A stretch of 64,000 nucleotides of DNA from an uncultured Cohaesibacter sp. (GTDB lineage: Bacteria; Pseudomonadota; Alphaproteobacteria; Rhizobiales; Cohaesibacteraceae), in assembly GCF_963667045.1 (NCBI RefSeq), contig NZ_OY762934.1, positions 2,287,501 to 2,351,500 of the forward strand, written 5' to 3'. Both the position numbers and the translations under genes were made by a program. Below the pieces are notes generated by a model. That model was not told where the DNA came from. It made no database searches and worked only from the letters and a program-made list of their open reading frames with translations. Each line of letters begins with the position of its first letter. Position 1 is the first letter of the stretch. This document shows positions 10,285-30,608 of this stretch, piece after piece.

Positions 10285-13050
10285 TCAGTTGAGCTTGTGC
10301 TTTTCCATGCTGCGTACTTCCTGTGCCTTGAACTGGCCAAAGCGCGGCAGGAACTTGTCCCATTCGACGGAGTGGGCGTCGAACTCCGGTCCGTCGATAC
10401 AGGCATGCTGACGCAGGGTCTTGCCATCCTTGAGCACAGGCACCATGCAGGCACCGCACATGCCGGTCGCGTCCACCATGATGGAGTTGAGGCTGACCAC
10501 GGTCGGCACTTCGTAAGGCTTGGTCAGATCGCTGACAGCGCGCATCATCATCGGAGGACCGACCGAGACGACTTCCGCGATCTTGCGGCCCTTGGAAGAC
10601 TTGCCATCCTTGAGCATGTCTTCGAGCGGGTTGGTGACGAAGCCCTTGATGCCGAAGGTGCCATCGTTGGAACAGTAGATGACGTCCAGCATGTCGCCAT
10701 ATTTGGCCTTCAGAAGCCCCATGCGTTCGTCTTCGCCCGTCCAGAACAGATGGTCTGCCGAACGGAAGCCGATGATCATGGTGACATGGTTGCCGATTTC
10801 CAGATGGGCCTTGGCAATCGGATAGATTGCTGGCAGGCCCACGCCACCGGCAGTGAAGACAACCGTTTCCGTCTCCGGATCGAACTTCCTGACGTCACTC
10901 GGTTCTCCGAGCGGGCCAGCGATACCGGCGAAGAAATCGCCTTCCTTCATCTTGTTCATCAGTTTGGTCGAGGTACCCATGCCCTGAATGACCAGATCGA
11001 TGGTGCCGTTTTCGCGGTTCCAGTCGGCAAGGGTCAGCGGAATGAGCTCGCCGTCCTGGGTTGCCAGAACGCGAACGAACTGACCGGCCCGAGCCGAATG
11101 GGCGATGACCGGTGCGCGGATTGTCATCTCGACAATGCCTGCGGCCAGATCGGTGTGCTTGAGAACGGTGTGTTCGGCCAGCCCAAGGCTGGTGAAGTGA
11201 TCCGCTCTCTTGACCATGTCGGCGATGTTGTCAGAGGCCAGATCGATGGATCCGAGGATCTGTCGAGCGGCTGCCTGACCGTCACCGGCGGCAAGAATGG
11301 CCGTGGAGCCACCGCGGGCTGCGTCACCACCGGTGTAGATGCCATCGATGGAGGTTTCCTGGCTGTCCTTGCCAACGTTGATCGTGCCCCATTTGGAGAC
11401 CTCGAGCTTCGGCTCGGAGGACGGGATGATCGGGTTGGACTTGTTGCCAAGGGCCATGATGACCAGATCGGCCGGCATGTTGATGACTTCACCGGTCGGA
11501 CGTGGACGACGGCGGCCGGATGCATCCGGTTCACCCAGCTCGTTCACATCCACAACAGCGTGGGTGACAAAGTGGGTGTGGTGATCGCCGACGAACTCTT
11601 TCGGTCCGCGCAGTTCTGCCAACTGGATACCCTCTTCCAAAGCATGCTCGAGCTCTTCAACACGGGCAGGCATTTCGGACTGGGTGCGGCGATAGACGAT
11701 GGTCACGTTGCCGCCGAGGCGTTTTGCCGTACGGGCTGCGTCCATCGCGGTGTTACCGCCACCAATCACGAGGATATTCTTGTCCTTGACGTCCGGAAGC
11801 GGCGTTTCATAGGCCGGATCGCGGCCACGCATCAGGTTGACGCGGGTCAGGAACTCGTTGGCCGACATGACACCGAGCAACTCCTCGCCCGGAACATTCA
11901 TGAAGGTTGGCAGGCCAGCACCGGAGCCGACGAAGATCTTCCAGAAGCCTGCGGCTTTGAGATCTTCAAGGGTTGCGGACTTGCCGACCACGAAGTTCTT
12001 GACGAACCGGCCACCCAGAGCGTCGATCTTGGCAACCACGTCGTCGATCAGCGTGTTTGGCAGACGGAATTCAGGAATACCGTAGCGCAGCACGCCGCCC
12101 AGCTCGTGGAATGCTTCGAACACCGTTACCGGGAAGCCCTCAACAGCCAGAAGATAGGCGTTGATAAGGCCGGAAGGACCGGAACCGACCACCGCGATGG
12201 GGGGCTTTTCGGCCTTCTGCCACGGGCTGACGATGCCAGCGAAGCGGGAAAGCTGATCCGGGTTGGCTGCCTTTTCGTGTTCCGGCAGGAACCATTCCAG
12301 CTGACCAATCTCGATCGGACGGTTGGTGTGCTTGCACACGCCCTGGCACTGATGTTCCTGCGGACAGACGCGGCCGGTAACGTTCGGCAGCGGGTTGCAG
12401 CTTTCGATCAGTTCCAGCGCCTTGCGGATCTTGCCCTTGGCGAGCAGGTCGATCATTTCCGGAATGTGGATCTTGACCGGGCAGCCGCCAATCTTCTTGG
12501 CTTCCTCGTCCTTGGTGCGCTGGATGATACGGCCCAGCTCGCAAGGCTTGTCTTCGCACTGCTTGTCACGCAGCACTTCAAGCCAGACGATCAGCTCGAC
12601 CTCACGCAAGGAGAAGCCGAGTGTCTGATAGCCAAGATAGCCCTGGTTGACGAGTTCAAAGTCGGTAGACCGCTCTTCCGGCGCCCGGATGTAAGGCGGA
12701 ATATAGTTGTCTTCGGGCCAGCCTTCGGACAGACCCTTGAACATCGGGTAGCGGTCGGACATGTAGGCATCGAGCGCCTTGATGAACTTGCGTTTGAAGC
12801 GGAGCGGCAGGCTCCACAGGAAACGCTGGATCAGGGTGCTCATGTCGTCGTTTTTCAGCAGAAGGCCCCAGAGCGTGTTGATGAATTTCTCGCTCAGTTC
12901 ATCCTGCTGGAATTCCCAGGCCATGGCCTGGGCTCCATCCGCGATGAAGACATTCCGCAGGGACCTGGGGTCCGCTGCGAGATGTTTCTTCAGAACGTCC
13001 ATTTGATGATCAAACAGCGCGCCCTGAGTGACTGCGGTGTCAACTGTCAT
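10285..13050 (-). CDS. Fused NfnB-NfnA-type ferredoxin:NAD(P) oxidoreductase
   Basis: A 921-residue fusion of a GltD/NfnB-like flavoprotein and an NfnA/SudB-like reductase. After an unusual N-terminal region of about 170 residues comes an iron-sulfur region (GGCPVKIHIPE, then RVCPQEHQCQGVC near 225), an FAD/NAD fold (VVGSGPSGL near 288) and a second nucleotide fold (VIGGGNTAMDA near 430). From about residue 640 there is a ferredoxin-reductase fold (RAGQFVRVLA, FTAGGVGLPAIYPIA) ending in a [2Fe-2S] site (GMCGACMVPV, CIDGP near 862-885). The known separate NfnAB couples reduced ferredoxin and NADH to NADPH formation by flavin electron bifurcation; that activity is inferred here. The ATG overlaps the upstream nifJ stop (ATGA), so the enzyme is translationally coupled to a PFOR. 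Separate NfnA and NfnB paralogues lie at 22924-25400. Confidence 0.87.
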   Translation of the reverse strand: MTVDTAVTQGALFDHQMDVLKKHLAADPRSLRNVFIADGAQAMAWEFQQDELSEKFINTLWGLLLKNDDMSTLIQRFLWSLPLRFKRKFIKALDAYMSDRYPMFKGLSEGWPEDNYIPPYIRAPEERSTDFELVNQGYLGYQTLGFSLREVELIVWLEVLRDKQCEDKPCELGRIIQRTKDEEAKKIGGCPVKIHIPEMIDLLAKGKIRKALELIESCNPLPNVTGRVCPQEHQCQGVCKHTNRPIEIGQLEWFLPEHEKAANPDQLSRFAGIVSPWQKAEKPPIAVVGSGPSGLINAYLLAVEGFPVTVFEAFHELGGVLRYGIPEFRLPNTLIDDVVAKIDALGGRFVKNFVVGKSATLEDLKAAGFWKIFVGSGAGLPTFMNVPGEELLGVMSANEFLTRVNLMRGRDPAYETPLPDVKDKNILVIGGGNTAMDAARTAKRLGGNVTIVYRRTQSEMPARVEELEHALEEGIQLAELRGPKEFVGDHHTHFVTHAVVDVNELGEPDASGRRRPRPTGEVINMPADLVIMALGNKSNPIIPSSEPKLEVSKWGTINVGKDSQETSIDGIYTGGDAARGGSTAILAAGDGQAAARQILGSIDLASDNIADMVKRADHFTSLGLAEHTVLKHTDLAAGIVEMTIRAPVIAHSARAGQFVRVLATQDGELIPLTLADWNRENGTIDLVIQGMGTSTKLMNKMKEGDFFAGIAGPLGEPSDVRKFDPETETVVFTAGGVGLPAIYPIAKAHLEIGNHVTMIIGFRSADHLFWTGEDERMGLLKAKYGDMLDVIYCSNDGTFGIKGFVTNPLEDMLKDGKSSKGRKIAEVVSVGPPMMMRAVSDLTKPYEVPTVVSLNSIMVDATGMCGACMVPVLKDGKTLRQHACIDGPEFDAHSVEWDKFLPRFGQFKAQEVRSMEKHKLN

Positions 13051-16000
13051 CGTACGATCTCCGCATTGCATTTTGCCGCCACTTTCATGATGCGGGACTT
13101 CAGGTCCGGAGTGACTTCGACGGTTTCCAGGGCACCCGGAATGGTATGGGCCACTTCCATGACCGATCCATTTTCGACAACCTTGGTCAACTCGAAGAGC
13201 TCAGGAACGTCCTGATAGCAAGCCTTGCAGTTGGTGCACAGGCTTACGTCTTCATCATGGATGTGCGGCAGGCTGGCGCCCCCGGCTGCCGGAGCTGCGG
13301 TTGCAGCGCCATTACCGGCAGATGCAGCTGCGGCCGTACCGCCCAGACCGAGAACGGCAGGAGACGCGGACATGGAGGCCATTTCAGCCATGCCGGCTGC
13401 AATGCTGTCCATGGAGAGCTCGCGGGATTCCAGAGCTTCCTTGTACTTCTGCTCCATCGCGGCCAGCTCTTTGCTGTGTGCAGCATCGAGTTTGGCAGCG
13501 GTCTGACCGGCCAGATGCTGAAGCGTACGCCAGTTCTGACGACGTTCTTCAACCAGATGCACGATCATGGCACCGACTTCCAGCTTGATCAGTTCACGCC
13601 TGGAATTGGCCTTGAGGATGTATGGCACCTTGCGGCCACGCTCTACCAGCGGCATGTCGATGAACTCATGCAGCGGCACAGCATCCACTTCGCCCTTGAG
13701 CGGACGGAACTGCTTCTTGAAGCGCACTTCGTCGTAAGCATAGTCAGCCGGGGTGAGTGGCAGATCCATCAGCTTGAGCTGGCCATCTTCCATGTAGGAG
13801 ATGGTCTGGCTTGCCCAGTCCTGATCGATTGCCGGGTTGCCTTCGATGTTGAAGCGTTCGGCAAGGGTCTTGCCAGCCTTCGGATCATGAACGAAAAGCG
13901 GGCTTACGCGCGCTTCGACGGCTAGTTTCGAACGGCGGTTGGCAGCATCGTCGGCAATCCCGTGCTCACCCTGACATGGCGTGTAGACGTCAAGCAGAGC
14001 AGGCGAAGAGGAATGCTTCAGATAGGCCATCACATTCTTGAGGAAGTGACCCGGGAAGGAGGTCGCACTCTGCACCACGAAGACTTTCGGGTGGAAGCTT
14101 GCGATCAGACCCAGTTCCTTGCGGTCCTCGACCTTGCCAGGGTTGGCCTTGCCAAAGCGTGCAAGGTCACTGTCCTGACCAGACAGGGATGCCGTGGATG
14201 CCTGACCACCGGTGTTGGAATAAACGCCGGAGTTGAGCACCATTACCTTGACTGGCGTGTTGCTTGCCAACAGGCGGGACAGGGCACCAAAGCCGATGTC
14301 ATAGGCAGCACCGTCACCGGAGATGTTCATGAAGGTCGGCAGCAGGTCACGTTCCGCGTCAGAGAAATTGTGCCATTCGAAGTTGCTCAGGAAAGCCCCA
14401 TCGGTTGCCGGATCATAGGCGTTGGCCAGTTCCAGCTTGGCAAGACGCATGGCCTTGAAGTCAACCGCAGCATTTGCGGTCATGCCTTCGAAGATACCCT
14501 TGATGACAGCCGGTCCGTCATGGAACAGGCTGTTGACCCATGGGTCATTGTAAGGGTTGAACGGGAAGGTCGACGCGTAAACCGAGCTACAGCCTGTCGC
14601 GTTGGCAACAACCAACGGAGACTGACCATTGCCGGTCGGGCCGCCTTCGAGCATGAAGAGACGTTTTTCGAGCGTCTTGAGGGCGCCGGAAATACGGGCT
14701 TCACGATCTGCATCGCCCTTGACTTCCTCGAGCTTGAGGGAAAGACCGTTGATCAGTTCTTCCAGCTCGCGGATATGGGCCTTCTCGCGACGATTGTGGA
14801 TCGCATGGGTTGCGGAAACAACCTGACGGATTGCCGTCACCTCGCCACAGCCGCGGCAAGCACCATGACCACCGGTGGTGGAATAGTAGTTGGCACGATC
14901 AAGCATCATGCGCTTGATTTCGTTGTTGTCCTCATAGGCAGGCTCAACGAAACGGGCTGGCGTGTTCGGGGTCTTCGACAGGAAGTTGAACTTGGACTGC
15001 AGGTCATGCAGCAAGCCGGCATCCTGATCGGTAGCCACCAGAGCGCCCGGACCGCAGATGTCCACGCATTCCAGACAGCCGGTGCATTTCCACGGGTCGA
15101 CAGCGACTGCAAACAGACCGCCCTGACCGGTGTGTTCCTTCTCCACTGCATCGAAGAAAGGACGGGTCTTGGCGACCGGCAGAACAGCAACCGCTTCAGC
15201 GATGCGGTCCAGATTGCCCTTGACAACGGCGCTCTCGACATAGAGCTCGTTGATGGCTTCCTTGACAAGCGTTGCAAAGCTCGGGGCATCGTCCAGAGCA
15301 TTGAACTTGCGGCGGACAGCCTCACCGATGGTGCGGACATACTCGCGAATGACTTCGCGCTGTTTTTCCGGCATTTCGACGTCTTTGGCAGCAGCCATCA
15401 GCAGAGCGTCGATGTCGAAAACGGTCGGCGGGATGGCGGCATCCGGGCAGACCATCGAGCAATCAAGGCAGCCGGTGCATTTTTCCGGATCGAACACCGG
15501 CACTTCGCGACGGAAGAGACCCTTGTCCTTGGCAGCAGCAGAGCCTGCAGGCATGAACATGCCGGAGCCCGGTAGAACCGGTGCCTCGCCAATTTCACCT
15601 GCGCGGAACGGAGCGGCAACAGTCTCTTCATAGTAGAGGCTGTCGAACAGGCCTTCCGGAGAGGACTCGGCGGCGATGCGGCACATGCTGGAAGAGATGG
15701 CCGGGGTGAATTCGGGAACCGGATCGCCAGCGGCGTCCACTTCAACGAACTCAGGAGCGGCATAATCAACGACAATCGTCTCGTCGACGCCGTCGCGGAT
15801 CACAGCCATGTTGCCTTCGACAACGGCTTCACCCTTGGTGCCGAACTTGTAGTTGATCTGGCTGCGGATCTTCTCGATCACGGCAGCGCGATCAGCCCCT
15901 TCGGTCACGCGTTCCACATGGCCACAAACGGCGCCGATGAAGGCGATACCCATCATGCGGGTCTGCAGGGCGGCAACCGGAGCATGTTTTCTGGCGATTG

Positions 16001-19132: not shown

Positions 19133-20686
19133 ATGGCGATTTCCAAAACTCTTTCTGATGAGTTGGAGAAACGGCGCAAAATCGCACTGGACGGTGGCGG
19201 CGCAAAGAAAGCTGAAGACAGACATGCCAAAGGTCGCATGACCGCCCGTGAACGCCTTGGATCTCTCTTTTCCAAAGGTACGTTCCAGGAGTTCGGCTTG
19301 CATGCGCAGCACAATACGCGTTATTTCGGCATGGCAGACAAATCCATCCCGACTGACGGTGTCATTTGCGGCACAGGCTTTGTCGACGGTCGTCCAGTAG
19401 CAGCCTTTTCCCAGGATTTCGGTGTGGTCGGTGGTTCCTTGGGTGAAATTCACGCCAAGAAAATTTGTGCAGCCCTCGATCATGCTGTGAAAGCAGGCGT
19501 TCCTGTTGTCGGTTTCAACGATTCCGGCGGGGCACGCATTCAAGAAGGTGTTGGCGCCCTTTCCGGCTACGGTCAGGTGTTCTATCGCAACGTTCAGCTT
19601 TCTGGTGTTGTTCCTCAGATTTCTGTCATCGCGGGCCCTTGCGCCGGTGGCGCAGCCTACAGCCCTGCCCTGACTGACTTCATCATCATGACCCGCAAGA
19701 ACGCACAGATGTTCATCTGTGGTCCCGAGGTCATTCGCTCCGTTACCGGCCAGGTAACCACGATGGATGAAATCGGTTCTGCCCAGGCTCATGCCTCGGT
19801 TTCCGGTAACATTCACTTCATCGCGGAAGACGACGCTCATGCTGTGCAGATCGTGCACAAGCTGCTGTCCTTCCTGCCATCCAACAACATGATGGATCCG
19901 CCGCATCACATCGAGCCGGACCTGAGGATTGTTGACGATCCGGCACTCGATGAACTCGTTCCAGCCGATTCCAAGACCCCGTTTGATTGCCGCAAGGTTA
20001 TCAAGAGTCTTGCTGACGGTGGCGACTTCCTCGAAGTCATGGAACATTTTGCAGCCAACATCGTGATCGGCTTCGGCCGTATTGGTGGTGTTGTTGTCGG
20101 TTTCGTATCCAACCAGCCAACCGTCAAGGCCGGCACCCTGGACATCGACGCCAGCGACAAGGCCGCACGCTTTGTTCGTTTCTGCAACGTCTACAATATC
20201 CCGATCGTCACCCTCGTCGACGTTCCTGGCTTCCTGCCGGGTGTCAACGAAGAACGTCGCGGTATTATCCGTCACGGCGCAAAAATGCTCTTTGCATATG
20301 CCTCCGCCACAGTTCCGAAGATCACGGTCATCATGCGCAAGGCCTATGGCGGCGCTTACCTGGCCATGTGCTCTGAAGACATGGGTGCAGACCGCGTCAT
20401 CGCATGGCCAACGGCCGAAATCGCGGTGATGGGTGCAGAGGGTGCTGTCAGCATTCTTTATCGCAAGGAACTGGCAGAAGCTGAAGACAAGGTTGCGAAA
20501 GCAAAAGAACTGGCCGATGAATATCGTACAGAATTTGCCACCCCATACCTGTCTGCAGGCCGACTGGCTATCCACGACATCATCCAGCCACGCGAAACCA
20601 AGAGCTCCATTGCCCTTACCCTTCGTGGCTTGATGTCCAAACGGGAAACCCGTCCGCCGAAGAAACACGGCAACATTCCACTCTGA
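19133..20686 (+). CDS. mmdA: Methylmalonyl-CoA decarboxylase-type carboxyltransferase, alpha subunit
   Basis: Cytosolic 517-residue carboxyltransferase of the PccB/MmdA family that moves CO2 from an acyl-CoA to biotin on the carrier subunit. Crotonase-fold halves carry oxyanion-hole glycines (FNDSGGARIQEGVGALSGYG near 120-140; AGPCAGGAAYSPALTDF near 163; YGGAYLAMCSEDMGAD near 405; WPTAEIAVMGAEGAV near 425). Linked to delta, biotin carrier and beta genes, it belongs to a membrane Na+-pumping decarboxylase rather than to propionyl-CoA carboxylase, since no biotin carboxylase gene is present. Oxaloacetate is unlikely because OadA is unrelated. Methylmalonyl-CoA is most likely; glutaconyl-CoA or malonyl-CoA cannot be excluded. 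The ribosome site before the ATG is weak. Confidence 0.88.
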   Translation: MAISKTLSDELEKRRKIALDGGGAKKAEDRHAKGRMTARERLGSLFSKGTFQEFGLHAQHNTRYFGMADKSIPTDGVICGTGFVDGRPVAAFSQDFGVVGGSLGEIHAKKICAALDHAVKAGVPVVGFNDSGGARIQEGVGALSGYGQVFYRNVQLSGVVPQISVIAGPCAGGAAYSPALTDFIIMTRKNAQMFICGPEVIRSVTGQVTTMDEIGSAQAHASVSGNIHFIAEDDAHAVQIVHKLLSFLPSNNMMDPPHHIEPDLRIVDDPALDELVPADSKTPFDCRKVIKSLADGGDFLEVMEHFAANIVIGFGRIGGVVVGFVSNQPTVKAGTLDIDASDKAARFVRFCNVYNIPIVTLVDVPGFLPGVNEERRGIIRHGAKMLFAYASATVPKITVIMRKAYGGAYLAMCSEDMGADRVIAWPTAEIAVMGAEGAVSILYRKELAEAEDKVAKAKELADEYRTEFATPYLSAGRLAIHDIIQPRETKSSIALTLRGLMSKRETRPPKKHGNIPL

Positions 20687-20702
20687 GCAAAGGATTGTCT
20701 TG

Positions 20703-21101
20703 ATGCTCGAAAACCTGGAAATCATTTTGACAGGCTTTGCTGTGGTGATGATCGCACTCGCACTCCTCTGGGGTGCCTGTGCAATCGTCGGGTCCTTCTT
20801 TACCCGCACACCACAGGGAACGTCTGGCACAGGTTCATCGCATGCACCGAAGGTACCGCCGAGCGCGGCGGTAGCCTCTCGTGCGGGCGTACCTCCACAT
20901 CATCTGGCTGCCATTGCAGCAGCCGTAGCCTACACACTCGGGCCGGGGTATATCGTGACTCGCGTCGCCGCGCCCCCGCACAAAGTCAGCGAATGGCCGC
21001 TGGAAGGTCGCATCGCCACCTTCTCGGCTCATAACACCCGCACCGGATGGGGCCCAATTGTTCCCACGAACAGCGGCCAAACCAATACTCTGAGAGGATA
21101 A
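20703..21101 (+). CDS. Na+-pumping decarboxylase gamma/delta subunit (OadG/MmdD type)
   Basis: Small membrane subunit that helps assemble the decarboxylase complex. The 132-residue protein has one N-terminal transmembrane helix (LTGFAVVMIALALLWGACAIVG, about residues 9-31) and a Pro/Ala-rich cytosolic tail, the classic OadG layout. The tail contains HHLAAIAAAVAYTLG, resembling the domain that contacts the carboxyltransferase. The ATG at 20703 follows AAAGGA about ten bases upstream; the preceding TTG is not needed. It lies between mmdA and the biotin-carrier gene. Confidence 0.82.
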   Translation: MLENLEIILTGFAVVMIALALLWGACAIVGSFFTRTPQGTSGTGSSHAPKVPPSAAVASRAGVPPHHLAAIAAAVAYTLGPGYIVTRVAAPPHKVSEWPLEGRIATFSAHNTRTGWGPIVPTNSGQTNTLRG

Positions 21102-21106
21102 TATCA

Positions 21107-21505
21107 ATGAAACGCTTGCGGATCACCGTACAGGGCATCACCTACGATGTGACGGTGGAAGACGAAGATTTGGATGCTGCCGCTGTTCCAGCTCCGGCTG
21201 CCAAACCAGCAGCCCCGGCTCCTGTTGCAGCTCCTGTAGCAGCTCCTGCCCCTGTCGCAGCTCCTGCTGCAGCTCCGGCTGCCCCTGCAGGTGACGGCGC
21301 TGTTCCCAGCCCGCTGGCAGGTACTGTCATGAGCGTGGAAGTTTCTGTCGGTCAGAAAGTTTCCGGCGGCGACACTCTTGTTGTTCTTGAAGCCATGAAG
21401 ATGAACACCAACATCAGCGCTCCATCTGATGGTACTGTTACTGCTGTGAACGTGGCTCCCGGTGCTACCGTGACCGAGGGTCAGATTCTTGTAACCCTTT
21501 CATAA
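21107..21505 (+). CDS. Biotin carrier subunit of the Na+-pumping decarboxylase
   Basis: Mobile carrier protein, 132 residues. A short N-terminal segment ([20 protein letters not shown]) is joined by a long Ala/Pro linker (about residues 30-64) to a biotinyl domain with the attachment motif VLEAMKMNT near residue 103, where Lys is biotinylated. The flexible linker is typical of carriers that shuttle CO2 between the alpha subunit and the membrane beta subunit. The ATG at 21107 is chosen because AGAGGA precedes it; a longer frame would overlap the previous gene without reason. Confidence 0.92.
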
Positions 21506-21522
21506 GGAGGGAGATCCTTCTC

Positions 21523-22680
21523 ATGGAAGGCACTGCAACTACAGTAACACAGGTCTCAAAGATCGAGCAGATCTGGCATCTGACCGCCTTTGGCGACGTG
21601 ACCTGGCAAATGCTGGTCATGTGGGCGATCATTGCGCTGCTCTTCTATCTTGCGATCTACAAGAAGTTCGAACCACTGCTGCTGATCCCGATCGCATTCG
21701 GTGCTCTGCTGGCCAACCTGCCTACGCAGGGCCTGGTCAACTTGCCCCATGGCGAAGAGGCTGGTGGTCTCTATTATTACATCTCCAAGGGCGTCGAGCT
21801 GGAAATCTTCCCGCCGCTCATCTTCATGGGCGTTGGTGCCCTGACCGACTTTGGTCCATTGATCGCCAACCCGCGCACGCTGCTCCTCGGGGCTGCTGCT
21901 CAGTTTGGTGTGTTCGCCACCTTCCTTGGTGCAACACTGCTTGGCTTTGAAGCTCATCAGGCTGCCGCCATTGGCATCATCGGTGGTGCAGACGGCCCGA
22001 CCTCGATCTTCCTTGCCAACAAGCTGGCCCCGGACCTTCTGGCTCCAATCGCCGTTGCTGCCTACAGCTACATGGCGCTTGTGCCGATGATCCAGCCACC
22101 AATCATGCGTGCCCTGACCTCGGAATCAGAACGCAAGATCAAGATGAAATCCCTGCGTAAAGTGAGCCGCCTTGAAAAGCTCATCTTTGCTGGCATGGTG
22201 ACCATCCTTGTGATCCTGCTGGTTCCGGCAGCGTCCGCCCTGATTGGCATGCTGATGCTTGGCAACTTCCTGCGTGAAAGCCTTGAGACCGAACGTCTGA
22301 CCAAGGCTGCACAGAACGAAGTGATCAACGTCGTGACGATCTTCCTTGGAACCTCTGTCGGCATCACGATGACTGCAGAACGCTTCCTGAACTTCGAAAC
22401 CATCAAGATTCTGGCACTCGGCATCGTTGCATTCAGCATCGCTACCGGAGCCGGGGTCATCATGGCCAAGATCATGAACGTGTTCTCGAAGAACAAGATC
22501 AACCCGCTTATCGGTTCTGCCGGCGTGTCCGCAGTGCCAATGGCCGCCCGCGTAAGTCAGGTGGAAGGTCAGAGAGCGGATCCGAGCAACTTCCTTCTCA
22601 TGCATGCCATGGGCCCGAACGTTGCCGGTGTGATCGGTACGGCCGTTGTGGCCGGCTTCTTCCTGGCGTGGTTCTCCTGA
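21523..22680 (+). CDS. mmdB: Na+-pumping decarboxylase beta subunit (OadB/MmdB type)
   Basis: Integral membrane subunit, 385 residues with about nine to eleven transmembrane helices, which removes CO2 from carboxybiotin and exports Na+. Family motifs are seen: [20 protein letters not shown] near 95-115, [20 protein letters not shown] near 149-168 (the Asp is part of the Na+ site), and [20 protein letters not shown] near 327-346. A strong AAGGAGGGAG stands before the ATG. It is the last gene of the four-gene operon, followed by a terminator. It converts the free energy of decarboxylation into a sodium gradient. Confidence 0.93.
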
Positions 22681-22805: not shown

Positions 22806-22819
22806 TTGATTGGTGTCAA
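22806..22819. promoter_or_regulatory. FNR-like box upstream of the nfn-kor operon
   Basis: TTGATTGGTGTCAA matches TTGAT-N4-ATCAA with one mismatch (GTCAA). It lies about 112 bases before the NfnA start codon, a plausible activator position. It would place this operon under the same oxygen control as the nifJ operon. Confidence 0.5.
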
Positions 22820-22923
22820 TGTTTCCACCCTTCATGAGCGTAGCGTCGAAGTTGTTGTGTTTGTTCAGCATATTGCCCTGGTGCAATCCGCTTGACAAAT
22901 TCTGCAACAAGGGGAGGTTAACA

Positions 22924-23892
22924 ATGTCCGATTGCGGGCTCGCCAGCGGTCGCGAGGAGGATCAGTCTGTCGGCATACGACAGAACGGGTCCGGAAAGGG
23001 TGTCACTTCATCTTTTCCAATCCTGACGCGCACCGATTTTTCAAAATCAACATTCCTTGTCGAAATAGAGCACCCGGTTATGGCGAAGGCTGCCAGACCC
23101 GGTCAGTTCGTCATCGTCATGCTGCATGAGCAGGGCGAGCGCGTACCGCTGACCATTGCCGATTTCGACCGGGACAACGGCACCATCACGCTTGTCGTAC
23201 AGGCCGTCGGCAAGTCCACGCGGGAAATGCAGCTGCTCTGCAAGCCCGGGCGGGACATCTATGCCATGCTCGGGCCGCTGGGCATTCCGAGCGAGATCTC
23301 CAGCAAAACCAAAAAGGTGATCTGTGTGGGGGGCGGACTTGGCATCGCCCCGATCTATCCGCAGGCGCGCGCCTTCAAGGAGGCCGGGGCCCATGTGATA
23401 GGCATTCTAGGCTTCCGGTCAAGCAACCTGATGTTCTGGGAAGAGAAGTTCCGGGCGATCTGCGATGATTTCATCATCTGCACCGACGATGGCTCGGCGG
23501 GCATTCACGGCCTTGTCACCCAAGGCATTGAAGCGGCAATCAAAGCGAATCCGGACGTAGACGAAGTGGTCGCCATCGGGCCTCCGGTGATGATGCGGGC
23601 CTGCGCAGAGACAACCCGCCCCTATGGCATCAAGACCATGGTCAGCCTCAATCCGATCATGGTGGACGGCACCGGCATGTGCGGCGGCTGTCGCGTCAAG
23701 GTCGGCGATGAAATCAAGTTTGCCTGTGTTGACGGACCAGACTTTGACGGCCATAAGGTTGACTTTGCCGATCTGTTCACCCGCCTGCAACGCTACCGTC
23801 CAGAAGAGGCCGAAGCGATGGAACGCTATTCGGAAAGCTGCCGCAGGCTGGCGCTTGCACCGGATGCAGCACCCAGCGAGGGAGGCAAGTAA
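22924..23892 (+). CDS. NfnA/SudB-type ferredoxin-NAD(P) reductase subunit
   Basis: A 322-residue FAD, nucleotide and [2Fe-2S] protein of the ferredoxin-NADP reductase/DHODB class. The FAD part has ARPGQFVIVML and RVPLTIADFDRDNGTITLVV. The NAD part has VICVGGGLGIAPIYPQARAF, and the iron-sulfur site near the end is GTGMCGGCRVKV followed by CVDGPDFDGH. In NfnAB this subunit binds NAD and the [2Fe-2S] cluster. The ATG at 22924 follows GGGGAGG; upstream in-frame Met codons lack one. Its stop overlaps the NfnB start (TAATG). It is clearly paralogous to the C-terminal third of the fusion protein at 10285-13050. Confidence 0.88.
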   Translation: MSDCGLASGREEDQSVGIRQNGSGKGVTSSFPILTRTDFSKSTFLVEIEHPVMAKAARPGQFVIVMLHEQGERVPLTIADFDRDNGTITLVVQAVGKSTREMQLLCKPGRDIYAMLGPLGIPSEISSKTKKVICVGGGLGIAPIYPQARAFKEAGAHVIGILGFRSSNLMFWEEKFRAICDDFIICTDDGSAGIHGLVTQGIEAAIKANPDVDEVVAIGPPVMMRACAETTRPYGIKTMVSLNPIMVDGTGMCGGCRVKVGDEIKFACVDGPDFDGHKVDFADLFTRLQRYRPEEAEAMERYSESCRRLALAPDAAPSEGGK

Positions 23893-25400
23893 TGGCTCGC
23901 AAGACAATTCGCTCGATCCCGCAGCAACGGGCGATCATGCCGGTGCAGGATCCGGAAATCCGCGCCCGCAATTTCGATGAAGTGGCGCTGGGCTTCGATC
24001 TGGAAAATGCCCTTCTGGAATGCGACCGCTGCCTGATGTGCCCGCAGCCCGCCTGCATCGAGGGATGCCCGGTGAAGATCGACATTCCCGGCTTCATTTC
24101 CAAGATGCTCGAAAAGGACTATCGCGGCGCCTATGAGCATCTGACCGACTCAACCCAGCTCCCGGCCGTTTGCGGCAGGGTCTGCCCACAGGAGGACCAA
24201 TGCGAGGGCGTCTGCGCGGTCGGCGCGGGAACCGGCCTCGAACCGGTTGCCATCGGACGCCTTGAACGCTTCCTCGGTGACATGGCCATCAGGGAGGGTT
24301 GGCAGAAGAAGGCACAGATCGCGCCAAACCGCTTCCGTGTCGCCATCGTGGGGTCTGGCCCGGCGGGCATGGCTTGTGCGGCGGATCTGGCAAAAGCCGG
24401 ATGCGCCGTTACCATTTATGAGGCCTTTCATGTGCCCGGTGGCGTGCTGCGCTACGGCATTCCGGAATTCCGTCTACCCAAGAGCGTGGTGGATGCCGAG
24501 ATTGCCAATCTGAAGGCGCTCGGTGTCGATATCCAGTGCAACACGCTGGTCGGTCGGCTGTTCACCATTGAGCAGATGCTCGGCGAGATGGGCTATGACG
24601 CGATATTCATTGGCGTCGGCGCCGGTACGCCACATTTCATGGACATCCCCGGAGAAAATCTCAACGGCGTTCTCTCGGCCAATGAGCTGCTCACACGCTG
24701 CAACCTGATGCATGCCGGTGACTTCCCCAAATTCGACACACCGCTCGGCCTTGGCAAGCGGGTTGCCGTGATCGGTTCGGGCAACACGGCCATGGACGCC
24801 ATGCGCGTTTCCCTTCGCCTTGGTGCCGAACAGGTTCATTGCATCTACCGGCGCAGCGAAGTCGAGTGCCCTGCCCGCAAGGAAGAGCTGCATCACGCCC
24901 AGGAAGAAGGTATCGCGTTCCACTGGCTGACCAATCCGGTCGAGATCCTTGGCGATGCGGACCACAATGTCCGGGCCATCCGCTGCGTGCAGATGGAGCT
25001 TGGCGAACCGGACAGCTCGGGGCGGCGACGCCCTGTGGTGGTGGAAGGCAGCGAGTTCGATTTCGAGGCCGACACGGTGGTCTATGCCATCGGCACCTCG
25101 CCGAACCCGATTCTCGGCCAGACCTCATCGATCGGCCTCAACAAGTGGGGCTATATCGATACCGATGAAGATCTGGCGACATCCCTTGCCGGGGTCTATG
25201 CGGGTGGCGACATCGTGACCGGTGCGGCAACCGTGATCAAGGCGATGGGGGCGGGCCGCAAGGCTGCTGACAGCATCCGCCGCTATCTGGGCCTGAGGGA
25301 CACCAATGTCATCTACGAGCCGGAGCAACCCGGTTTCGATAACAGCCTGTTCGGCATCGACCTCGCCGAGCATTGCTTTACCAGAATAAGACAAATCTAG
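23892..25400 (+). CDS. NfnB/GltD-type flavoprotein subunit
   Basis: A 502-residue protein homologous to the small subunit of glutamate synthase and to NfnB. The N-terminal region has the two [4Fe-4S] motifs in standard form (LLECDRCLMCPQPACIEGCP near 40-60, then CGRVCPQEDQCEGVC near 94-108). FAD and NAD folds follow (VAIVGSGPAGMACAADLA near 150; VAVIGSGNTAMDAMRVSLR near 290), ending with the AGGDIVTGAATVIKAMGAGR motif. No large GltB gene is present, so glutamate synthesis is not its role. With NfnA it should form a ferredoxin/NAD(P) transhydrogenase supplied by the oxidoreductase encoded downstream. GGAGG precedes the ATG. Confidence 0.88.
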   Translation: MARKTIRSIPQQRAIMPVQDPEIRARNFDEVALGFDLENALLECDRCLMCPQPACIEGCPVKIDIPGFISKMLEKDYRGAYEHLTDSTQLPAVCGRVCPQEDQCEGVCAVGAGTGLEPVAIGRLERFLGDMAIREGWQKKAQIAPNRFRVAIVGSGPAGMACAADLAKAGCAVTIYEAFHVPGGVLRYGIPEFRLPKSVVDAEIANLKALGVDIQCNTLVGRLFTIEQMLGEMGYDAIFIGVGAGTPHFMDIPGENLNGVLSANELLTRCNLMHAGDFPKFDTPLGLGKRVAVIGSGNTAMDAMRVSLRLGAEQVHCIYRRSEVECPARKEELHHAQEEGIAFHWLTNPVEILGDADHNVRAIRCVQMELGEPDSSGRRRPVVVEGSEFDFEADTVVYAIGTSPNPILGQTSSIGLNKWGYIDTDEDLATSLAGVYAGGDIVTGAATVIKAMGAGRKAADSIRRYLGLRDTNVIYEPEQPGFDNSLFGIDLAEHCFTRIRQI

Positions 25401-25417
25401 CTGCCGGAGCCAAGACC

Positions 25418-27370
25418 ATGACGGAATATGGCATGCAGACTTCCTCTCATGATGCCCCACCAAGCGAAAGCGGTGTGGCATCAAGGAAGCTTCCCGCACG
25501 TGGACCTGCGGAAGTCATTCAGGAACACATCGTAGAAATCGTCAGTGACTCGGGCGAAGGCGCACAAAGGTGCGGCCAGGCGCTCGCGTCCATCGCGGCC
25601 CGATCCGGGCACGGGATCTGGACCGTGGAAATCATTCCCGCCGAAATCCAGCCCCCTCACCGTTCCGTGGCCGGAGCCAGCGGCAACCGGGTGCGCATGG
25701 CCGCGCACAAGGTGACAAACGTCGGCGACCAGGCCGATCTGGTCATCGCCTTCAACGAGCAGGTTCTCCTCAGCCGTCTTCAGGCCAGGGAAATCAAGCC
25801 CGGTGCCACCATCCTCATCGAGGAAATGTGGAAGCACGACAAGGATCCCGCCATCGCCGAAAACTATGCCCGGGTGACTGCGGATGTCAGGGCTCAGGGT
25901 TACCGGCTGTATGAGATTCCGATGGAGACGGAATGCCTCAAGTATGTGCCGGACGCCCGCAAGGGCAAGAACATGTTCGTGCTCGGCATCCTGTGCACGA
26001 TCTACAGTCTCGATAAGGCGCTCGCCGAAGCGCAGGTCCGGCTGACCTTTGCCAAGAAGGATCAGAAGATCGTCGATGCCAACCTCGAGCTGCTGGCCGC
26101 CGGTCGGGCATGGGCAGAGGACAATCTCGCCATCCGCTTCATGATCCCGGCAGCCCCCGTGGTCAAGCCGCAGATCGTGACCAACGGCAATGCCGCTCTG
26201 GCGCTCGGCGTTGTGGCCTCCGGCATGGAGGTCTGCGCGATGTATCCGATCACGCCAGCCACCTCGGCATCGCACTATCTGTCGACCATCTTCGAAAAGG
26301 TCGGTTGCGTCGTGCATCAGGCAGAAGACGAGATCTCGGCGGCTACCTTTGCCATCGGGGCATCCTATGCAGGCAAATGCGCCGTGACCATCACCTCCGG
26401 CCCTGGCCTGTCGCTCAAGCAGGAAGCCATCGGCCTTGCGGTGATGACAGAGATCCCGCTGGTGGTGATCGACGTGCAACGCGGTGGCCCGTCCACCGGT
26501 CTGCCGACCAAGGTCGAGCAGGGCGACATGATGTCGGCGATGTTCGGCAGCCATGGCGACGCCCCCAAGATCGTCATGGCGGTGGATTCCATCGAGGACT
26601 GCTTCTATTCGGTGATCACCGCACGCAAGATCGCCGAGACCTTCAACATGGTGGTGGTCATCCTGTCCGACGCTGCCCTGTCGACGGCCCAGCAGCCATT
26701 TGACCGGCCGCAATTCAATGCCGACTGGCTGGCACCTCCGGTCAACCAGAGCGCCGTGCCCGAGGATGCCCATCCCTATGACTGGGACGAGCGTACCGGT
26801 ATCGCCACCCGCTTCATTCCGGGACAGCCGAACGGCATGCACTGTCTCACCGGCCTTGCCCATGACCGGGACAGCCACGTCGCCTATGATCCTCAAATCA
26901 ACGAGGAAGGGCTTTTGAACCGCAGCCGCAAGCTGGCCGCCTTCCAGAAGACCCTGCGGCTGGCGCCTGTCTATGGCGATGAGGAGGGCGATCTTCTGCT
27001 CATCGGATGGGGCAGCACCCGCGGTGCCATCGAGGAAGCCGTCCAGACCATGCGCGCGCAGGGTCACAAGGTGTCTTCGCTGCATCTCAAATATCTCCAG
27101 CCCATGGCTTCCGGCATCGACGCGGTGATGAAGCGTTTCACCAAGGTGATGACCATCGAGAACAACTGGAACGACCCCAAGAGCGATCCACTGATCAACG
27201 ATGCCAACCGGCGCTATTCGCATCTGGCGATGCTGCTGCGGTCACGCTGGCTGGTCGATATCGACTGCTGGGGCAACGCCCGCGGCCAGCCGCTGAAGCC
27301 GGGAGAGATCATCCGGGCGGCTCTGGCCAAACTGAACGAAGACGAACAGCAAGCGGCGGGAGGGCAATGA
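25418..27370 (+). CDS. korA: 2-oxoacid:ferredoxin oxidoreductase, fused gamma-alpha subunit
   Basis: A 650-residue KorA-type subunit with the gamma domain first (about residues 25-205, with VIAFNEQVLLSRLQAREIKPG) and the alpha domain after (NGNAALALGVVASGMEVCAM, YPITPATSASHYLSTIF, QAEDEISAATFAIGASYAG, and GGPSTGLPTKVEQGD near 365). The two-subunit gamma-alpha plus beta layout is usual for 2-oxoglutarate or branched 2-oxoacid enzymes; the exact substrate cannot be read from the sequence. The ATG at 25418 is preferred because GGAG precedes it; the longer frame overlaps the end of NfnB. It is followed after one base by korB. Confidence 0.9.
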   Translation: MTEYGMQTSSHDAPPSESGVASRKLPARGPAEVIQEHIVEIVSDSGEGAQRCGQALASIAARSGHGIWTVEIIPAEIQPPHRSVAGASGNRVRMAAHKVTNVGDQADLVIAFNEQVLLSRLQAREIKPGATILIEEMWKHDKDPAIAENYARVTADVRAQGYRLYEIPMETECLKYVPDARKGKNMFVLGILCTIYSLDKALAEAQVRLTFAKKDQKIVDANLELLAAGRAWAEDNLAIRFMIPAAPVVKPQIVTNGNAALALGVVASGMEVCAMYPITPATSASHYLSTIFEKVGCVVHQAEDEISAATFAIGASYAGKCAVTITSGPGLSLKQEAIGLAVMTEIPLVVIDVQRGGPSTGLPTKVEQGDMMSAMFGSHGDAPKIVMAVDSIEDCFYSVITARKIAETFNMVVVILSDAALSTAQQPFDRPQFNADWLAPPVNQSAVPEDAHPYDWDERTGIATRFIPGQPNGMHCLTGLAHDRDSHVAYDPQINEEGLLNRSRKLAAFQKTLRLAPVYGDEEGDLLLIGWGSTRGAIEEAVQTMRAQGHKVSSLHLKYLQPMASGIDAVMKRFTKVMTIENNWNDPKSDPLINDANRRYSHLAMLLRSRWLVDIDCWGNARGQPLKPGEIIRAALAKLNEDEQQAAGGQ

Positions 27371-27371
27371 G

Positions 27372-28364
27372 ATGACTGCTTCCATGAGCCAATGTCTGAT
27401 GCAGATGGTGCAGACAGACTATCAGATTTCAGACTATCAGAGCGCCATCACCCCACGCTGGTGCACCGGTTGCGGCGACAACGCCATTCTGACCGCCATG
27501 CAGCGGCTCTGCCGCGATGAACAGCTGCCTCCGGAAAAGACCGTTTGTGTCTCGGGTATCGGCTGCGCCTCGCGTCTGCCCCACTATATGAACGCCTATG
27601 GCTTCCATGGCATTCACGGGCGCGCCCTGCCGATTGCCGAAGGCGTCAAGATCCGGCGACCCGACCTCCATGTCTTCGTGACGACCGGCGACGGCGACTG
27701 CTGCTCCATCGGGGCGGCCCACTGGCTGCATGCGGTGCGTTACAACATGAACATGACGATGCTGCTGCATGACAACAATGTCTATGGTCTCACCAAGAAA
27801 CAGGCATCGCCGACATCACCCAAGGGATTGAAGAGCAACACCACCCCCTTCGGGGCAACCCTCAATCCGCTCAACCCGCTGAGTGTCACGCTGGGTATTG
27901 CCAACGTGTCCTTTGTGGCACAGGTGCCCGACTGGATCCCGGAACTGCTCTATGATGTGCTGTCCAAGGCCTATCATCACAAGGGCTTTTCCTTCATCCG
28001 CATTCTGCAACGCTGCCCGAACTTCATGAACCATCATTTCGATGCAGCCGTGCAGGATCCGCTGCGGATCCGGATGCTCACCCATTCGAACGGACTTCGA
28101 CTGAAACCGGAACTGTCCCGCATCTACAAGAATCAGGAGACCCACGACCCGCTTGATCTGCATCGGGCGCAGGCTCTTGCCGTGCTGGATGAGGAGATCC
28201 CGGTCGGTGTGCTCTATTCCAACCCGGATGTGCCCTGTTATGACGAATTGCGCAAAGGCAAGCGTCCCAACACGCCGCAACTGGTGGAAACCGTCCTGAA
28301 TGAAGAATTCGACAAGGTCGGCATCTGGCCCGAAGGCCAGCAAGCCGCCTCAAACGGGGAGTGA
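27372..28364 (+). CDS. korB: 2-oxoacid:ferredoxin oxidoreductase, beta subunit
   Basis: Thiamine-diphosphate-binding subunit, 330 residues. It shows the beta-subunit signature PRWCTGCGDNAILTAMQRL near residue 30, CVSGIGCASRLPHYMN, the TPP/Mg motif TTGDGDCCSIGAAHWLHA near 105, and NNVYGLTKKQASPTS near 138. The cysteines near residue 30 and further ones are positioned for the [4Fe-4S] cluster typical of this subunit. GGAGGG at the end of korA serves as its ribosome site. Together with KorA it should oxidatively decarboxylate a 2-oxoacid to an acyl-CoA and reduce ferredoxin. Confidence 0.92.
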   Translation: MTASMSQCLMQMVQTDYQISDYQSAITPRWCTGCGDNAILTAMQRLCRDEQLPPEKTVCVSGIGCASRLPHYMNAYGFHGIHGRALPIAEGVKIRRPDLHVFVTTGDGDCCSIGAAHWLHAVRYNMNMTMLLHDNNVYGLTKKQASPTSPKGLKSNTTPFGATLNPLNPLSVTLGIANVSFVAQVPDWIPELLYDVLSKAYHHKGFSFIRILQRCPNFMNHHFDAAVQDPLRIRMLTHSNGLRLKPELSRIYKNQETHDPLDLHRAQALAVLDEEIPVGVLYSNPDVPCYDELRKGKRPNTPQLVETVLNEEFDKVGIWPEGQQAASNGE

Positions 28365-28370
28365 CCGATC

Positions 28371-30608
28371 ATGCAGGTGGCTCAAATGATCACGGACCCT
28401 CAGGTCCCGGGCTCCGATGCTTCCGCCAGCGCGGCAGCATTGACGGCCCTCCGTCCGGCGCTCTTTGCCCGCTATATGGCGCTCGACACCTTGCGCTATG
28501 ACTATCCGCTGGTTCTGGTCGAGGGGGAGGAGGTTGAAAAGCCGCTCATCCCTCTCAGCCAGATCGTCGATGACGCGTTGCGCCTCGTCGCGCCGCATGG
28601 CCCCGACGGCGAGGAGCTGCGCCAGCAGGTTCTGCGCCTTGAACAACGCATGCGTGACAAGGTCACCAAAGGGGCGGAGGAAAAGCTCTCCGAACTCTGG
28701 CGGATCAGCGAAGCCGAACTGGTAGCCGAAAGCGGCCAGTCAACTTTCGGTCCGCTCGATGAGACACTGGAACGGGCATGGGGCGCCATCACCGTGGATG
28801 GCCGGGTCATAGGTTGCACGGAGGCAACGCCCGGCAAGGTGCTGGCCCATGTATGGCAGGCGATGCATCACATGCGGGCCCGCAAGTTCCGCTACAAGGT
28901 CGACCGGCTTGTCCTCAAGCTCAACGACATCCTGAAATCGGATCACATCAAGTCCGACGAGGCCCACAGCCCCGAGGCACTGGCCCAGTCGATGGGCCTT
29001 GATGGCGACAAGTCCATCGATTTCAGCGCCCTGTCGAACATCCTGCATCGGGTGCGTCCGGAAGACCGGCTGCCGGCCGATCGGGTGGCACGCATCCGGC
29101 ATGTGCTACAGGTGCTGCAGACCCAGGCCTTCTTCGGGCCGGGTCGGGCAACCTTCAGCTATCCGGACAAGGCCGTCTGCTACAGCTATGTGTTCCAGAG
29201 CTGCACCGAGGCGCTTGATGCCTATCGGGATCGCCTGCCAAGCGTCATCGAATTCACCAAGGCGCTGGCGATTGCCGAAATGGAGGCCGAGAACAAGTAT
29301 GTTCCCGCGCTGCATGACGCGATCTTCGAGAGTTTTGATGAGAGCGACCTCACCGAAGAACAGATGGCCTTTCTGCCTCCGGCCGTCGTTTTCCTGCGCG
29401 ATGGCGTGACCGAATCCGTCGAACTGGCCCGGGCCTTTGAGGCTCTTGCCTGCGGGTTGCCGATCAAGGTGCTGATCCAGGTCGATGACATTCTCGGCCC
29501 GACCTCGCCCGAGCCTCCCCGCAATTCCTTCGGGGCGGGCAATGCGCGGCTTGCCAGCATGGCCATGGGTATCAACAATGCCTTCGTCGTGCAGTGTTCC
29601 AGTGCCCATATGGTCCGCATGCAGGATGATCTGGTTGCCGCCATGCAATATGGCGGGCCAGCGATGTTCAGCATCTACTCGGGTGCCACGAAAACCGTTG
29701 TCGGGGTCCCGGCCTATATACTGGCAGCGGCAGCAACCGAATGCCGGATGTTCCCCAATTTCAGCTATGACCCGTCAGCGGGGAATGATCTGGCAAGCCG
29801 GTTCGACCTGTCCGCCAACCCGCAGCTGGATCGGGACTGGCCGGAACATACGCTGCAGTTCGAGGATGCCTCGGGGCGGCGCCAGGAGGAGACCGTGCGG
29901 TTCACCCTTGGCGACTTTGCTCTGGCCGATGCCCGCTATCACCGCTTCTGCCAGACGGTTGAGGCGAGCAGCTGGAGCGGTGACATGGTGCCGTTCGATG
30001 AGAGGCTGAAGGCGTCGAGTTCGGCAACGGACATCAAGCGCGCCTTCGTGCTTGGCATTGACCGTCAGGACCAGATGATGCGGGTTGTGGTTGATGACAA
30101 GATCACGGTCGCAGCACGGCGTTGCAATGATGCCTGGACCAAGCTGCAGGAGCTGGCAGGCATCAACAACTCCCATGTGCTGGCCCAACTGGCCGAGGAA
30201 CGCCGCAAGCGGGAAGCCCTTGTGGTCGAACTCTCGACAGAAGGGGCTCAGGCAGCCACGACCGCAGCAAAGGCGGAACCGGCTCCGGAGACCTCGGCGC
30301 CAAAAGCCGAGACGACGACCGCCGAGGCAGAAAGCGATAGCGCCGTTGCGGAAGTGCTCGACGACATGCCGTGGATCGAGACATCACGCTGCACAACCTG
30401 CAACGAGTGTCGCCAGATCAACGACCGTCTGTTCGGCTACAATGAAAACATGCAAGCCTTTATCGCCGATCCGGATGCGGGCACCTATCGCCAACTGGTG
30501 GATGCGGCCGAGGGCTGTCAGGTCAGCATCATTCATCCGGGCAAACCACGCAACCCGAATGAACCGGACCTTGAAGACCTGATGGAACGGGCAAAGCCGT
30601 TTCTCTAG
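28371..30608 (+). CDS. PFOR C-terminal-half homologue with inactive thiamine site and ferredoxin-like tail
   Basis: A 745-residue protein with no standard name known to me. Residues from about 335 on align by eye with the thiamine domain and tail of the long PFOR at 13047-18029: FLPPAVVFLRDGVTESVELA corresponds to the PFOR GDG region, AFVVQCSSAH to VFVVQSATS, and DPSAGNDLASRFDLSANPQL to DPKAGKTLAERFNIEGNPAI. The catalytic GDG is RDG here and the paired Asn region is lost, so it should not bind thiamine normally. After an Ala/Glu linker (about 625-660) comes a cysteine site, CTTCNECRQIND near 672, with a later Cys in EGCQVSI, like the PFOR tail. It starts six bases after korB with GGGAG upstream, so a third, electron-carrying or scaffolding subunit of the oxidoreductase is the likely role. 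Confidence 0.75.
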   Translation: MQVAQMITDPQVPGSDASASAAALTALRPALFARYMALDTLRYDYPLVLVEGEEVEKPLIPLSQIVDDALRLVAPHGPDGEELRQQVLRLEQRMRDKVTKGAEEKLSELWRISEAELVAESGQSTFGPLDETLERAWGAITVDGRVIGCTEATPGKVLAHVWQAMHHMRARKFRYKVDRLVLKLNDILKSDHIKSDEAHSPEALAQSMGLDGDKSIDFSALSNILHRVRPEDRLPADRVARIRHVLQVLQTQAFFGPGRATFSYPDKAVCYSYVFQSCTEALDAYRDRLPSVIEFTKALAIAEMEAENKYVPALHDAIFESFDESDLTEEQMAFLPPAVVFLRDGVTESVELARAFEALACGLPIKVLIQVDDILGPTSPEPPRNSFGAGNARLASMAMGINNAFVVQCSSAHMVRMQDDLVAAMQYGGPAMFSIYSGATKTVVGVPAYILAAAATECRMFPNFSYDPSAGNDLASRFDLSANPQLDRDWPEHTLQFEDASGRRQEETVRFTLGDFALADARYHRFCQTVEASSWSGDMVPFDERLKASSSATDIKRAFVLGIDRQDQMMRVVVDDKITVAARRCNDAWTKLQELAGINNSHVLAQLAEERRKREALVVELSTEGAQAATTAAKAEPAPETSAPKAETTTAEAESDSAVAEVLDDMPWIETSRCTTCNECRQINDRLFGYNENMQAFIADPDAGTYRQLVDAAEGCQVSIIHPGKPRNPNEPDLEDLMERAKPFL

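What the first reader, a model, noticed from the sequence alone, without database searches (positions are those of the whole stretch)
28371..30608. Third subunit made from a PFOR half with a dead thiamine site
This 745-residue protein aligns with the thiamine domain and tail of the long PFOR, but GDG has become RDG and the paired Asn region is gone, while the cysteine tail is kept. It is encoded six bases after korB. It looks like a catalytic domain recycled as a structural and electron-transfer subunit of a KorAB enzyme, which I do not know as a described complex.
Basis: partly seen in the sequence, partly recalled or inferred. Interest (0 to 1): 0.8.

Follow-up and report, generated by a model that had tools for sequence, protein, structure and literature searches.

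The report
Gutted PFOR half beside KorAB genes
Some alphaproteobacteria carry, right behind the genes of a 2-oxoacid-oxidising enzyme, a protein made from half of a related enzyme whose catalytic parts have been removed but whose terminal iron-sulfur tail is kept, so it probably wires the enzyme to its electron acceptor.

Summary
Observation confirmed and extended. The 745-residue protein (28371-30608; TS) aligns from about residue 20 to its end with the whole C-terminal half of long PFORs (hhalign probability 100, E 5.8e-87), not only the thiamine domain. In 9 of 9 TS proteins compared, both ferredoxin clusters of PFOR domain V are deleted, the TPP-proximal cluster is broken, GDG is changed and the Asn is gone; only the four Cys of the C-terminal single-cluster tail survive, 9 of 9. 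It is under purifying selection: dN/dS about 0.11 overall, 0 to 0.02 in the tail. In two genome samples (199 and 289) 13 genomes carry it, always directly behind korB, and the same 13 are the ones with this KorB type; nfn genes precede in 11 of 11 whose contig reaches. Best explanation: a non-catalytic KorAB partner with a tethered ferredoxin passing electrons between KorAB and NfnAB. Complex and electron path are inferred, not shown. Of named families only single-cluster ferredoxin models match it credibly, in the tail. PFORs with the same tail lie in Rnf loci.

The parts
28371..30608 (+). third-subunit gene (TS), 745 aa, PFOR C-terminal half without catalytic cofactor motifs
28371..28796 (+). 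TS residues 1-142: probable remnant of PFOR domain V (intramolecular ferredoxin) with both 4Fe-4S loops deleted
   Evidence: hhalign score 47 against best of 30 shuffles 24; none of the 8 domain V Cys in 9 of 9 TS
28797..29360 (+). TS residues 143-330: segment that in PFOR carries proximal-cluster Cys (GACxGCGE became GRVIGCTE) plus the helical insert shared with PFORs of Rnf loci
29361..30230 (+). TS residues 331-620: PFOR domain VI core, thiamine-site motifs lost
   Evidence: hhalign E 4.5e-44 for this part alone
29397..29405 (+). RDG in place of GDG (residues 343-345)
29484..29510 (+). residues 372-380 in place of PFOR's DTxVYSNTGGQ stretch
30231..30359 (+). variable linker, residues 621-663
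   Evidence: mean pairwise identity 0.29, dN/dS 0.68 and 0.27
30360..30605 (+). C-terminal single-cluster ferredoxin-like tail (Fer4_13), residues 664-745, Cys 674, 677, 680, 716 and IHPGKP
27372..28364 (+). korB, catalytic beta subunit (GDG...N and candidate cluster Cys present)
25373..27370 (+). korA, fused gamma-alpha subunit of the 2-oxoacid oxidoreductase
   Evidence: POR and POR_N, TIGR03710 over cut-off
23892..25400 (+). nfnB-like NAD(P)H flavoprotein, large subunit
   Evidence: Fer4_20, Pyr_redox_2, TIGR01316 over cut-off
22810..23892 (+). nfnA-like FAD/2Fe-2S small subunit (start uncertain; a relative's 322-aa frame begins near 22924)
   Evidence: PRK06222 over cut-off; L003
13047..18038 (-). 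full-length PFOR-like protein (1663 aa) with its own C-terminal Cys tail; homologue for comparison
   Evidence: PFOR domains by Pfam; below NCBIfam's PFOR cut-off, 400 of 911 bits
10285..13071 (-). fused NfnB-NfnA protein beside that PFOR
   Evidence: PRK12779 over cut-off

Best explanation
The gene makes a non-catalytic partner subunit of the neighbouring KorAB 2-oxoacid oxidoreductase. It derives from the C-terminal half (domains V and VI plus tail) of a long PFOR (well supported), probably of the kind now found in Rnf loci (suggested by shared tail and insert). Its thiamine-site motifs and the ligands of PFOR's three clusters were lost, while KorAB keeps the thiamine and cluster motifs. The conserved PFOR-like core docks on KorAB and/or NfnAB (inferred). 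A one-cluster ferredoxin domain, tethered by a variable linker of about 43 residues, moves between KorB's cluster and NfnAB (inferred), so electrons from a 2-oxoacid (perhaps 2-oxoglutarate, not shown) reach NAD(P), possibly by Nfn-type confurcation, without free ferredoxin; the reverse direction is also possible.
For: Near end-to-end homology, E 5.8e-87; six tested stretches all above 30 shuffles each; as negative controls KorA, KorB, NfnA, NfnB and the fused NfnBA stay at probability below 1. Cofactor table: none of 9 keeps a domain V Cys, the first or fourth proximal Cys, or the Asn; 9 of 9 keep the four tail Cys. Purifying selection on the core (dN/dS 0.04 to 0.14), tail 0 to 0.02, linker relaxed. 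KorB directly upstream in 13 of 13 and the same genomes found by either query in the two samples; nfn genes upstream in 11 of 11 contigs that reach, one of them only into nfnB. Two-subunit OFORs lack domain V and have a pocket where ferredoxin was modelled (PMC5020499, passages). The tail type is shared with PFORs in Rnf loci.
Against: No structure: the AlphaFold model has pLDDT 36 and is unusable. Complex formation is untested. In G113 the next gene is rnfB and its contig is cut upstream, so the partner may differ between lineages. The genome also has SucA, a standard 2-oxoglutarate dehydrogenase E1, so substrate and role of KorAB are open. Gene order alone cannot show electron flow. The tree has no outgroup, so descent from the Rnf-locus type is not rooted.
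Confidence: 0.6

Rival explanations
1. TS is an assembly, stability or oxygen-protection factor for KorAB; its one cluster is structural or a sensor, and electrons leave KorAB through free ferredoxin to NfnAB.
For: Strict linkage to korB in the samples and a conserved core with low dN/dS fit equally; sequence does not show electron transfer.
Against: The tail is the most conserved part and sits behind a variable linker, and PFORs with the same tail lie beside rnf genes, which suggests an electron-transfer site.
Confidence: 0.22
2. TS links KorAB to the membrane Rnf pump (or to free ferredoxin), and NfnAB acts separately.
For: G113 has korB-TS-rnfB; a Gemmatirosa plasmid has korA-korB-ORF344-rnfB-PFOR-rnfC; the tail is of the type of PFORs in Rnf loci; the window genome has an rnfC elsewhere.
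Against: The 11 genomes whose contigs reach have nfn genes in the operon. In 16 kb around the window genome's rnfC the reference proteins matched only rnfC; the rnfB query was from G113 and may have missed a distant rnfB.
Confidence: 0.12
3. TS is a catalytically active, unusual thiamine subunit, or a decaying pseudogene.
For: Homology to domain VI is retained.
Against: GDG, Asn and most cluster Cys lost in the 9 compared, no domain I match; dN/dS about 0.11 and no internal stop in the matches listed.
Confidence: 0.03

Closest known systems
PFOR / NifJ (pyruvate:ferredoxin oxidoreductase), domains V-VI
   Same: TS aligns collinearly with the whole C-terminal half
   Different: ligands of all three standard clusters and the thiamine-site motifs are lost; no match to domains I-IV
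Long PFORs in Rnf loci (L065, L068, L069, L075; L074 with rnfC)
   Same: same single-cluster tail with IHPGxP (or LHPGxP in L074); helical insert aligned with that of TS, shorter in L075
   Different: PFOR domains found by Pfam in the three scanned and C-terminal motifs intact in five of five, L075's first domain V loop not covered; KorAB seen in only one of the five stretches
Two-subunit OFOR, Sulfolobus tokodaii type (PMC5020499, passages)
   Same: KorAB here has the same gamma-alpha plus beta make-up without a domain V match
   Different: the Sulfolobus enzyme is described as (ab)2 with free ferredoxin as acceptor
[quoted passage not shown]
   Same: window nfnA/nfnB are separate genes of this type
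   Different: here in one operon with korAB and TS; 'oxoglutarate' does not occur in that review's main text, PFOR appears once in a gene-arrangement legend
2-oxoglutarate:NADP+ oxidoreductase of Azoarcus evansii (recalled, seen in no call)
   Same: a KorAB-type enzyme that reduces NADP+ through an additional subunit (recalled)
   Different: as recalled its extra subunit is a flavoprotein; not checked here
Split PFOR C-terminal halves of about 550 aa (L040, L042)
   Same: domains V-VI as a separate protein
   Different: cluster and thiamine motifs read as intact and no Fer4_13-like Cys tail seen (read by eye)

Membership tests
PFOR catalytic half (domains V-VI) | collinear sequence homology | tested here: met
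   E 5.8e-87 over 713 columns
PFOR catalytic half (domains V-VI) | GDG...N thiamine/Mg motif | tested here: not met
   first G of GDG 0 of 9, Asn 0 of 9 TS; 9 of 9 PFORs have both
PFOR catalytic half (domains V-VI) | four Cys of TPP-proximal cluster | tested here: not met
   first Cys 0 of 9, second 8 of 9, third 4 of 9 by alignment, fourth 0 of 9
PFOR catalytic half (domains V-VI) | eight Cys of domain V | tested here: not met
   none in 9 of 9 TS
Fer4_13 single-cluster ferredoxin domain (tail only) | Pfam score over gathering cut-off, four Cys | tested here: met
   window TS 26.5 bits against 24.5; 8 of 8 members match at E up to 0.01; four Cys 9 of 9
Fer4_13 single-cluster ferredoxin domain (tail only) | bound, redox-active 4Fe-4S cluster | not testable with these tools
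   needs protein
dicluster delta subunit (PorD/OorD type, recalled) | two-cluster ferredoxin domain | tested here: not met
   only single-cluster Pfam models match the 8 TS
KorAB two-subunit OFOR (korA, korB) | gamma-alpha fusion with POR and POR_N; beta with TPP_enzyme_C and candidate cluster Cys | tested here: met
NfnAB (nfnA, nfnB) | sequence family and Cys-rich cluster motifs | tested here: met
   PRK06222 and TIGR01316 over cut-off; Cys positions
NfnAB (nfnA, nfnB) | electron bifurcation | not testable with these tools
   PMC6405883 says functions of Nfn homologues cannot be told from sequence alone (passage)

The most novel reading that the evidence does not exclude
KorAB, TS and NfnAB form one supercomplex in which a swinging, tethered ferredoxin domain feeds 2-oxoacid electrons straight into an electron-confurcating flavoprotein (2-oxoacid + CoA + NADH + 2 NADP+ giving acyl-CoA, CO2, NAD+ and 2 NADPH, or the reverse), and the scaffold that holds it is a pseudo-enzyme made from another enzyme of the same superfamily.
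Probability: 0.35. Interest if true: 0.8.

Novelty: new variant of a known kind. Interest (0 to 1): 0.62.

Why it matters
2-oxoacid oxidoreductases occur as one long chain or as separate subunits; here a whole catalytic half appears to have been stripped of its cofactors and reused beside a different member of the same superfamily. If the complex is real, it is a ferredoxin-free route from 2-oxoacids to NAD(P)H, and the PFORs of Rnf loci with the same tail suggest a common plug that couples such enzymes to Nfn or Rnf, which can be tested directly.

Tried and rejected
A viral-contig scan confirmed no relative; plasmids gave two records, both with PFORs of the Rnf-locus type. The match in G196 (E 5e-4, 109 residues) lies in a 372-aa frame opposite a transporter-like gene and was dropped. 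In the phylum sample, 38 of 49 matching genomes match only a stretch within about positions 390-532, mostly in ORFs of about 550 aa; the two opened (L040, L042) are PFOR halves with intact motifs, the other 36 were not opened. The Gemmatirosa ORF344 as a TS relative: not significant in one comparison (probability 0.6, E 0.1); in another above all 40 shuffles but at probability 15.8 only (P 0.0016); left as suggestive. RnfB as an hhalign control against the TS profile gave probability 21.7, in the ferredoxin tail, as expected for Fe-S domains. The nine-sequence table and tree hold 9 of the 12 full-length TS seen; L004/G149, G175 and G197 were left out as near copies, and the pieces from G057 and G392 as incomplete. 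PFOR sequences were cut to their last 870 residues there, which removes the first domain V loop of one. The tree shows TS as one group (100/99) but has no outgroup and a long G113 branch. Limits of the genome searches: only 5, 3 or 2 first-look candidates per genome were scored, so absences are not proof.

Full report
What is there. The frame at 28371-30608 codes for 745 residues and begins 6 bases after the end of korB. It closes a run of five genes on one strand: nfnA-like (22810-23892), nfnB-like (23892-25400), korA (25373-27370), korB (27372-28364) and this gene, called TS below. Pfam sees only the tail (Fer4_13, residues 670-722, 26.5 bits against a cut-off of 24.5) and NCBIfam nothing. 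Over eight family members Pfam gives Fer4_13 in 8 of 8 and Fer4_15 in one; NCBIfam gives one weak, surely chance match in one member (E 0.0048). The named relatives found by a scan that reaches close relatives only are two Cohaesibacter species, 94% and 81% identical, so the window is Cohaesibacter by inference.

Relation to PFOR. BLASTP against the window's own 1663-residue PFOR-like protein gives 24% identity, E 6e-25. A profile of eight TS proteins against five long PFORs from Rnf loci gives E 5.8e-87 over 713 columns, from about TS residue 20 to the end, against the whole PFOR C-terminal half. Six stretches tested alone each beat the best of 30 column shuffles. As controls KorA, KorB, NfnA, NfnB and fused NfnBA stay at probability below 1, RnfC at 2.6, and RnfB reaches 21.7 in the ferredoxin tail only. 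Residues 1-142 are the weakest part (score 47 against 24, probability 79), so their origin from domain V is the least certain step.

What was lost and kept. Across 9 TS (of 12 full-length ones seen) and 9 PFORs (one PFOR was cut before the first four domain V Cys and one PFOR has no tail): the eight domain V Cys are gone in 9 of 9 TS; of the four proximal-cluster Cys the first and fourth are gone in 9 of 9, the second is kept in 8 and the third in 4; GDG's first G is gone in 9 of 9 and its D is kept in 6 of 9; the Asn of the second thiamine motif is gone in 9 of 9. The four tail Cys and the HPG motif are kept in 9 of 9. That PFOR domain VI binds thiamine and the proximal cluster and domain V the other two is from PMC5020499 (passages); which residues are the ligands is recalled.

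Selection. Between the window and L004 and L003, dN/dS of TS is 0.108 and 0.112; residues 331-620 0.064 and 0.129; the tail 0.000 and 0.020; the stretch 621-663 0.68 and 0.27 (simple Nei-Gojobori counting, silent sites near saturation for L003). KorA, KorB and NfnB are at 0 to 0.06. TS is thus evolving as a working protein, faster than its neighbours, with a conserved tail on a variable linker.

Occurrence. In 199 genomes of the order, 14 have a match: 9 are TS (six genomes of the window's genus, itself included, G161, G057 in two pieces on two contigs, and the divergent G113), 4 are long PFOR-type frames (G014, G137, G165, G180) and one is spurious (G196). In 289 genomes of the class 5 have TS, the window's included; a profile search of 385 class genomes found the same five. 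The samples overlap in part. KorB of this type occurs in the same 9 of 199 (E up to 1e-70) and the same 5 of 289 (E up to 1e-80): 13 distinct genomes, always directly upstream on the same strand. Weaker KorB relatives were not counted. The full order nfnA-nfnB-korA-korB-TS is seen in 10 of the 13 and in C. marisflavi (L003); G392's contig ends inside nfnB, G161's inside korA, G113's inside korB. That L004 is genome G149 is inferred from equal contig length. Among 398 genomes of the phylum only the window's has TS. TS is thus uncommon and, in these samples, alphaproteobacterial. Other phyla could not be sampled apart from the plasmid collection.

Origin and neighbours. TS forms one group (support 100/99; unrooted, G113 on a long branch). 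It shares with PFORs of Rnf loci a helical insert (shorter in L075) and the tail CxxCxxC...C...HPGxP, which the other PFORs compared lack in this form. Such PFORs lie between rnfB and rnfC in L065, L068, L069 and L075 and before rnfC in L074. In G113 the gene after TS is rnfB, and on a Gemmatirosa plasmid korA-korB-ORF344 precede rnfB-PFOR-rnfC. So related enzyme types appear beside two kinds of acceptor genes, nfn and rnf.

How it most likely works. Shown: PFOR descent, loss of catalytic motifs, retained tail, selection, gene linkage. Inferred: TS binds KorAB; the tail carries a 4Fe-4S cluster; it takes electrons from KorB's cluster, which in the Sulfolobus two-subunit enzyme lies near a pocket where ferredoxin was modelled, and hands them to NfnAB. 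Substrate and direction are unknown. The genome also encodes SucA; the long PFOR-like protein of the window scores below NCBIfam's PFOR cut-off (400 of 911 bits), so its substrate is not certain either. A methylmalonyl-CoA-decarboxylase-like sodium pump set lies just upstream (its carboxyltransferase is below that family's cut-off), so a role in anaerobic 2-oxoglutarate to propionate metabolism is a guess.

Literature. Ten searches of the open library were answered. Among the papers they listed (lists capped) none describes such a subunit by title or the start of the abstract; most subscription papers are not held. Passages, not whole texts, were seen of PMC9973337 (KorAB and the fused Nfn AadN as alternatives in Rhodopseudomonas palustris), PMC3534657, PMC5020499, PMC9765128, PMC6405883, PMC12174285 (no occurrence of PFOR, additional subunit or oxoglutarate) and PMC6349859. 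The Azoarcus evansii enzyme is recalled only.

Noticed in passing
L065:7781-12736, L068:7494-12425, L069:7237-12165, L075:5989-11094, L074:6019-10908: Long PFORs with a Fer4_13-type tail lie inside Rnf loci (rnfB-PFOR-rnfC in four; before rnfC in L074), suggesting direct PFOR-to-Rnf coupling.
   Followed up: partly
L075:4035-5069: 344-aa ORF right after korA-korB on a Gemmatirosa plasmid, no Pfam match, weakly like TS 178-495 without the tail (not significant).
   Followed up: partly
window 10285-13071: Fused NfnB-NfnA beside the long PFOR seems to lack part of the Cys that NfnB of the korAB operon has before GCPVK (read by eye).
   Followed up: no
window 19133-22680: Methylmalonyl-CoA/oxaloacetate decarboxylase-like sodium pump genes (carboxyltransferase, biotin carrier, beta subunit) lie between the PFOR and the korAB operon.
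   Followed up: no
L040:358-2034 and L042:1375-3009: Stand-alone PFOR C-terminal halves of about 550 aa with cluster and thiamine motifs intact.
   Followed up: partly
L060:12927-16849 and L064:1-3652: Behind TS in G251, and on the G057 contig that holds the TS tail, lies a second set of split PFOR-like and NfnB-like genes.
   Followed up: no
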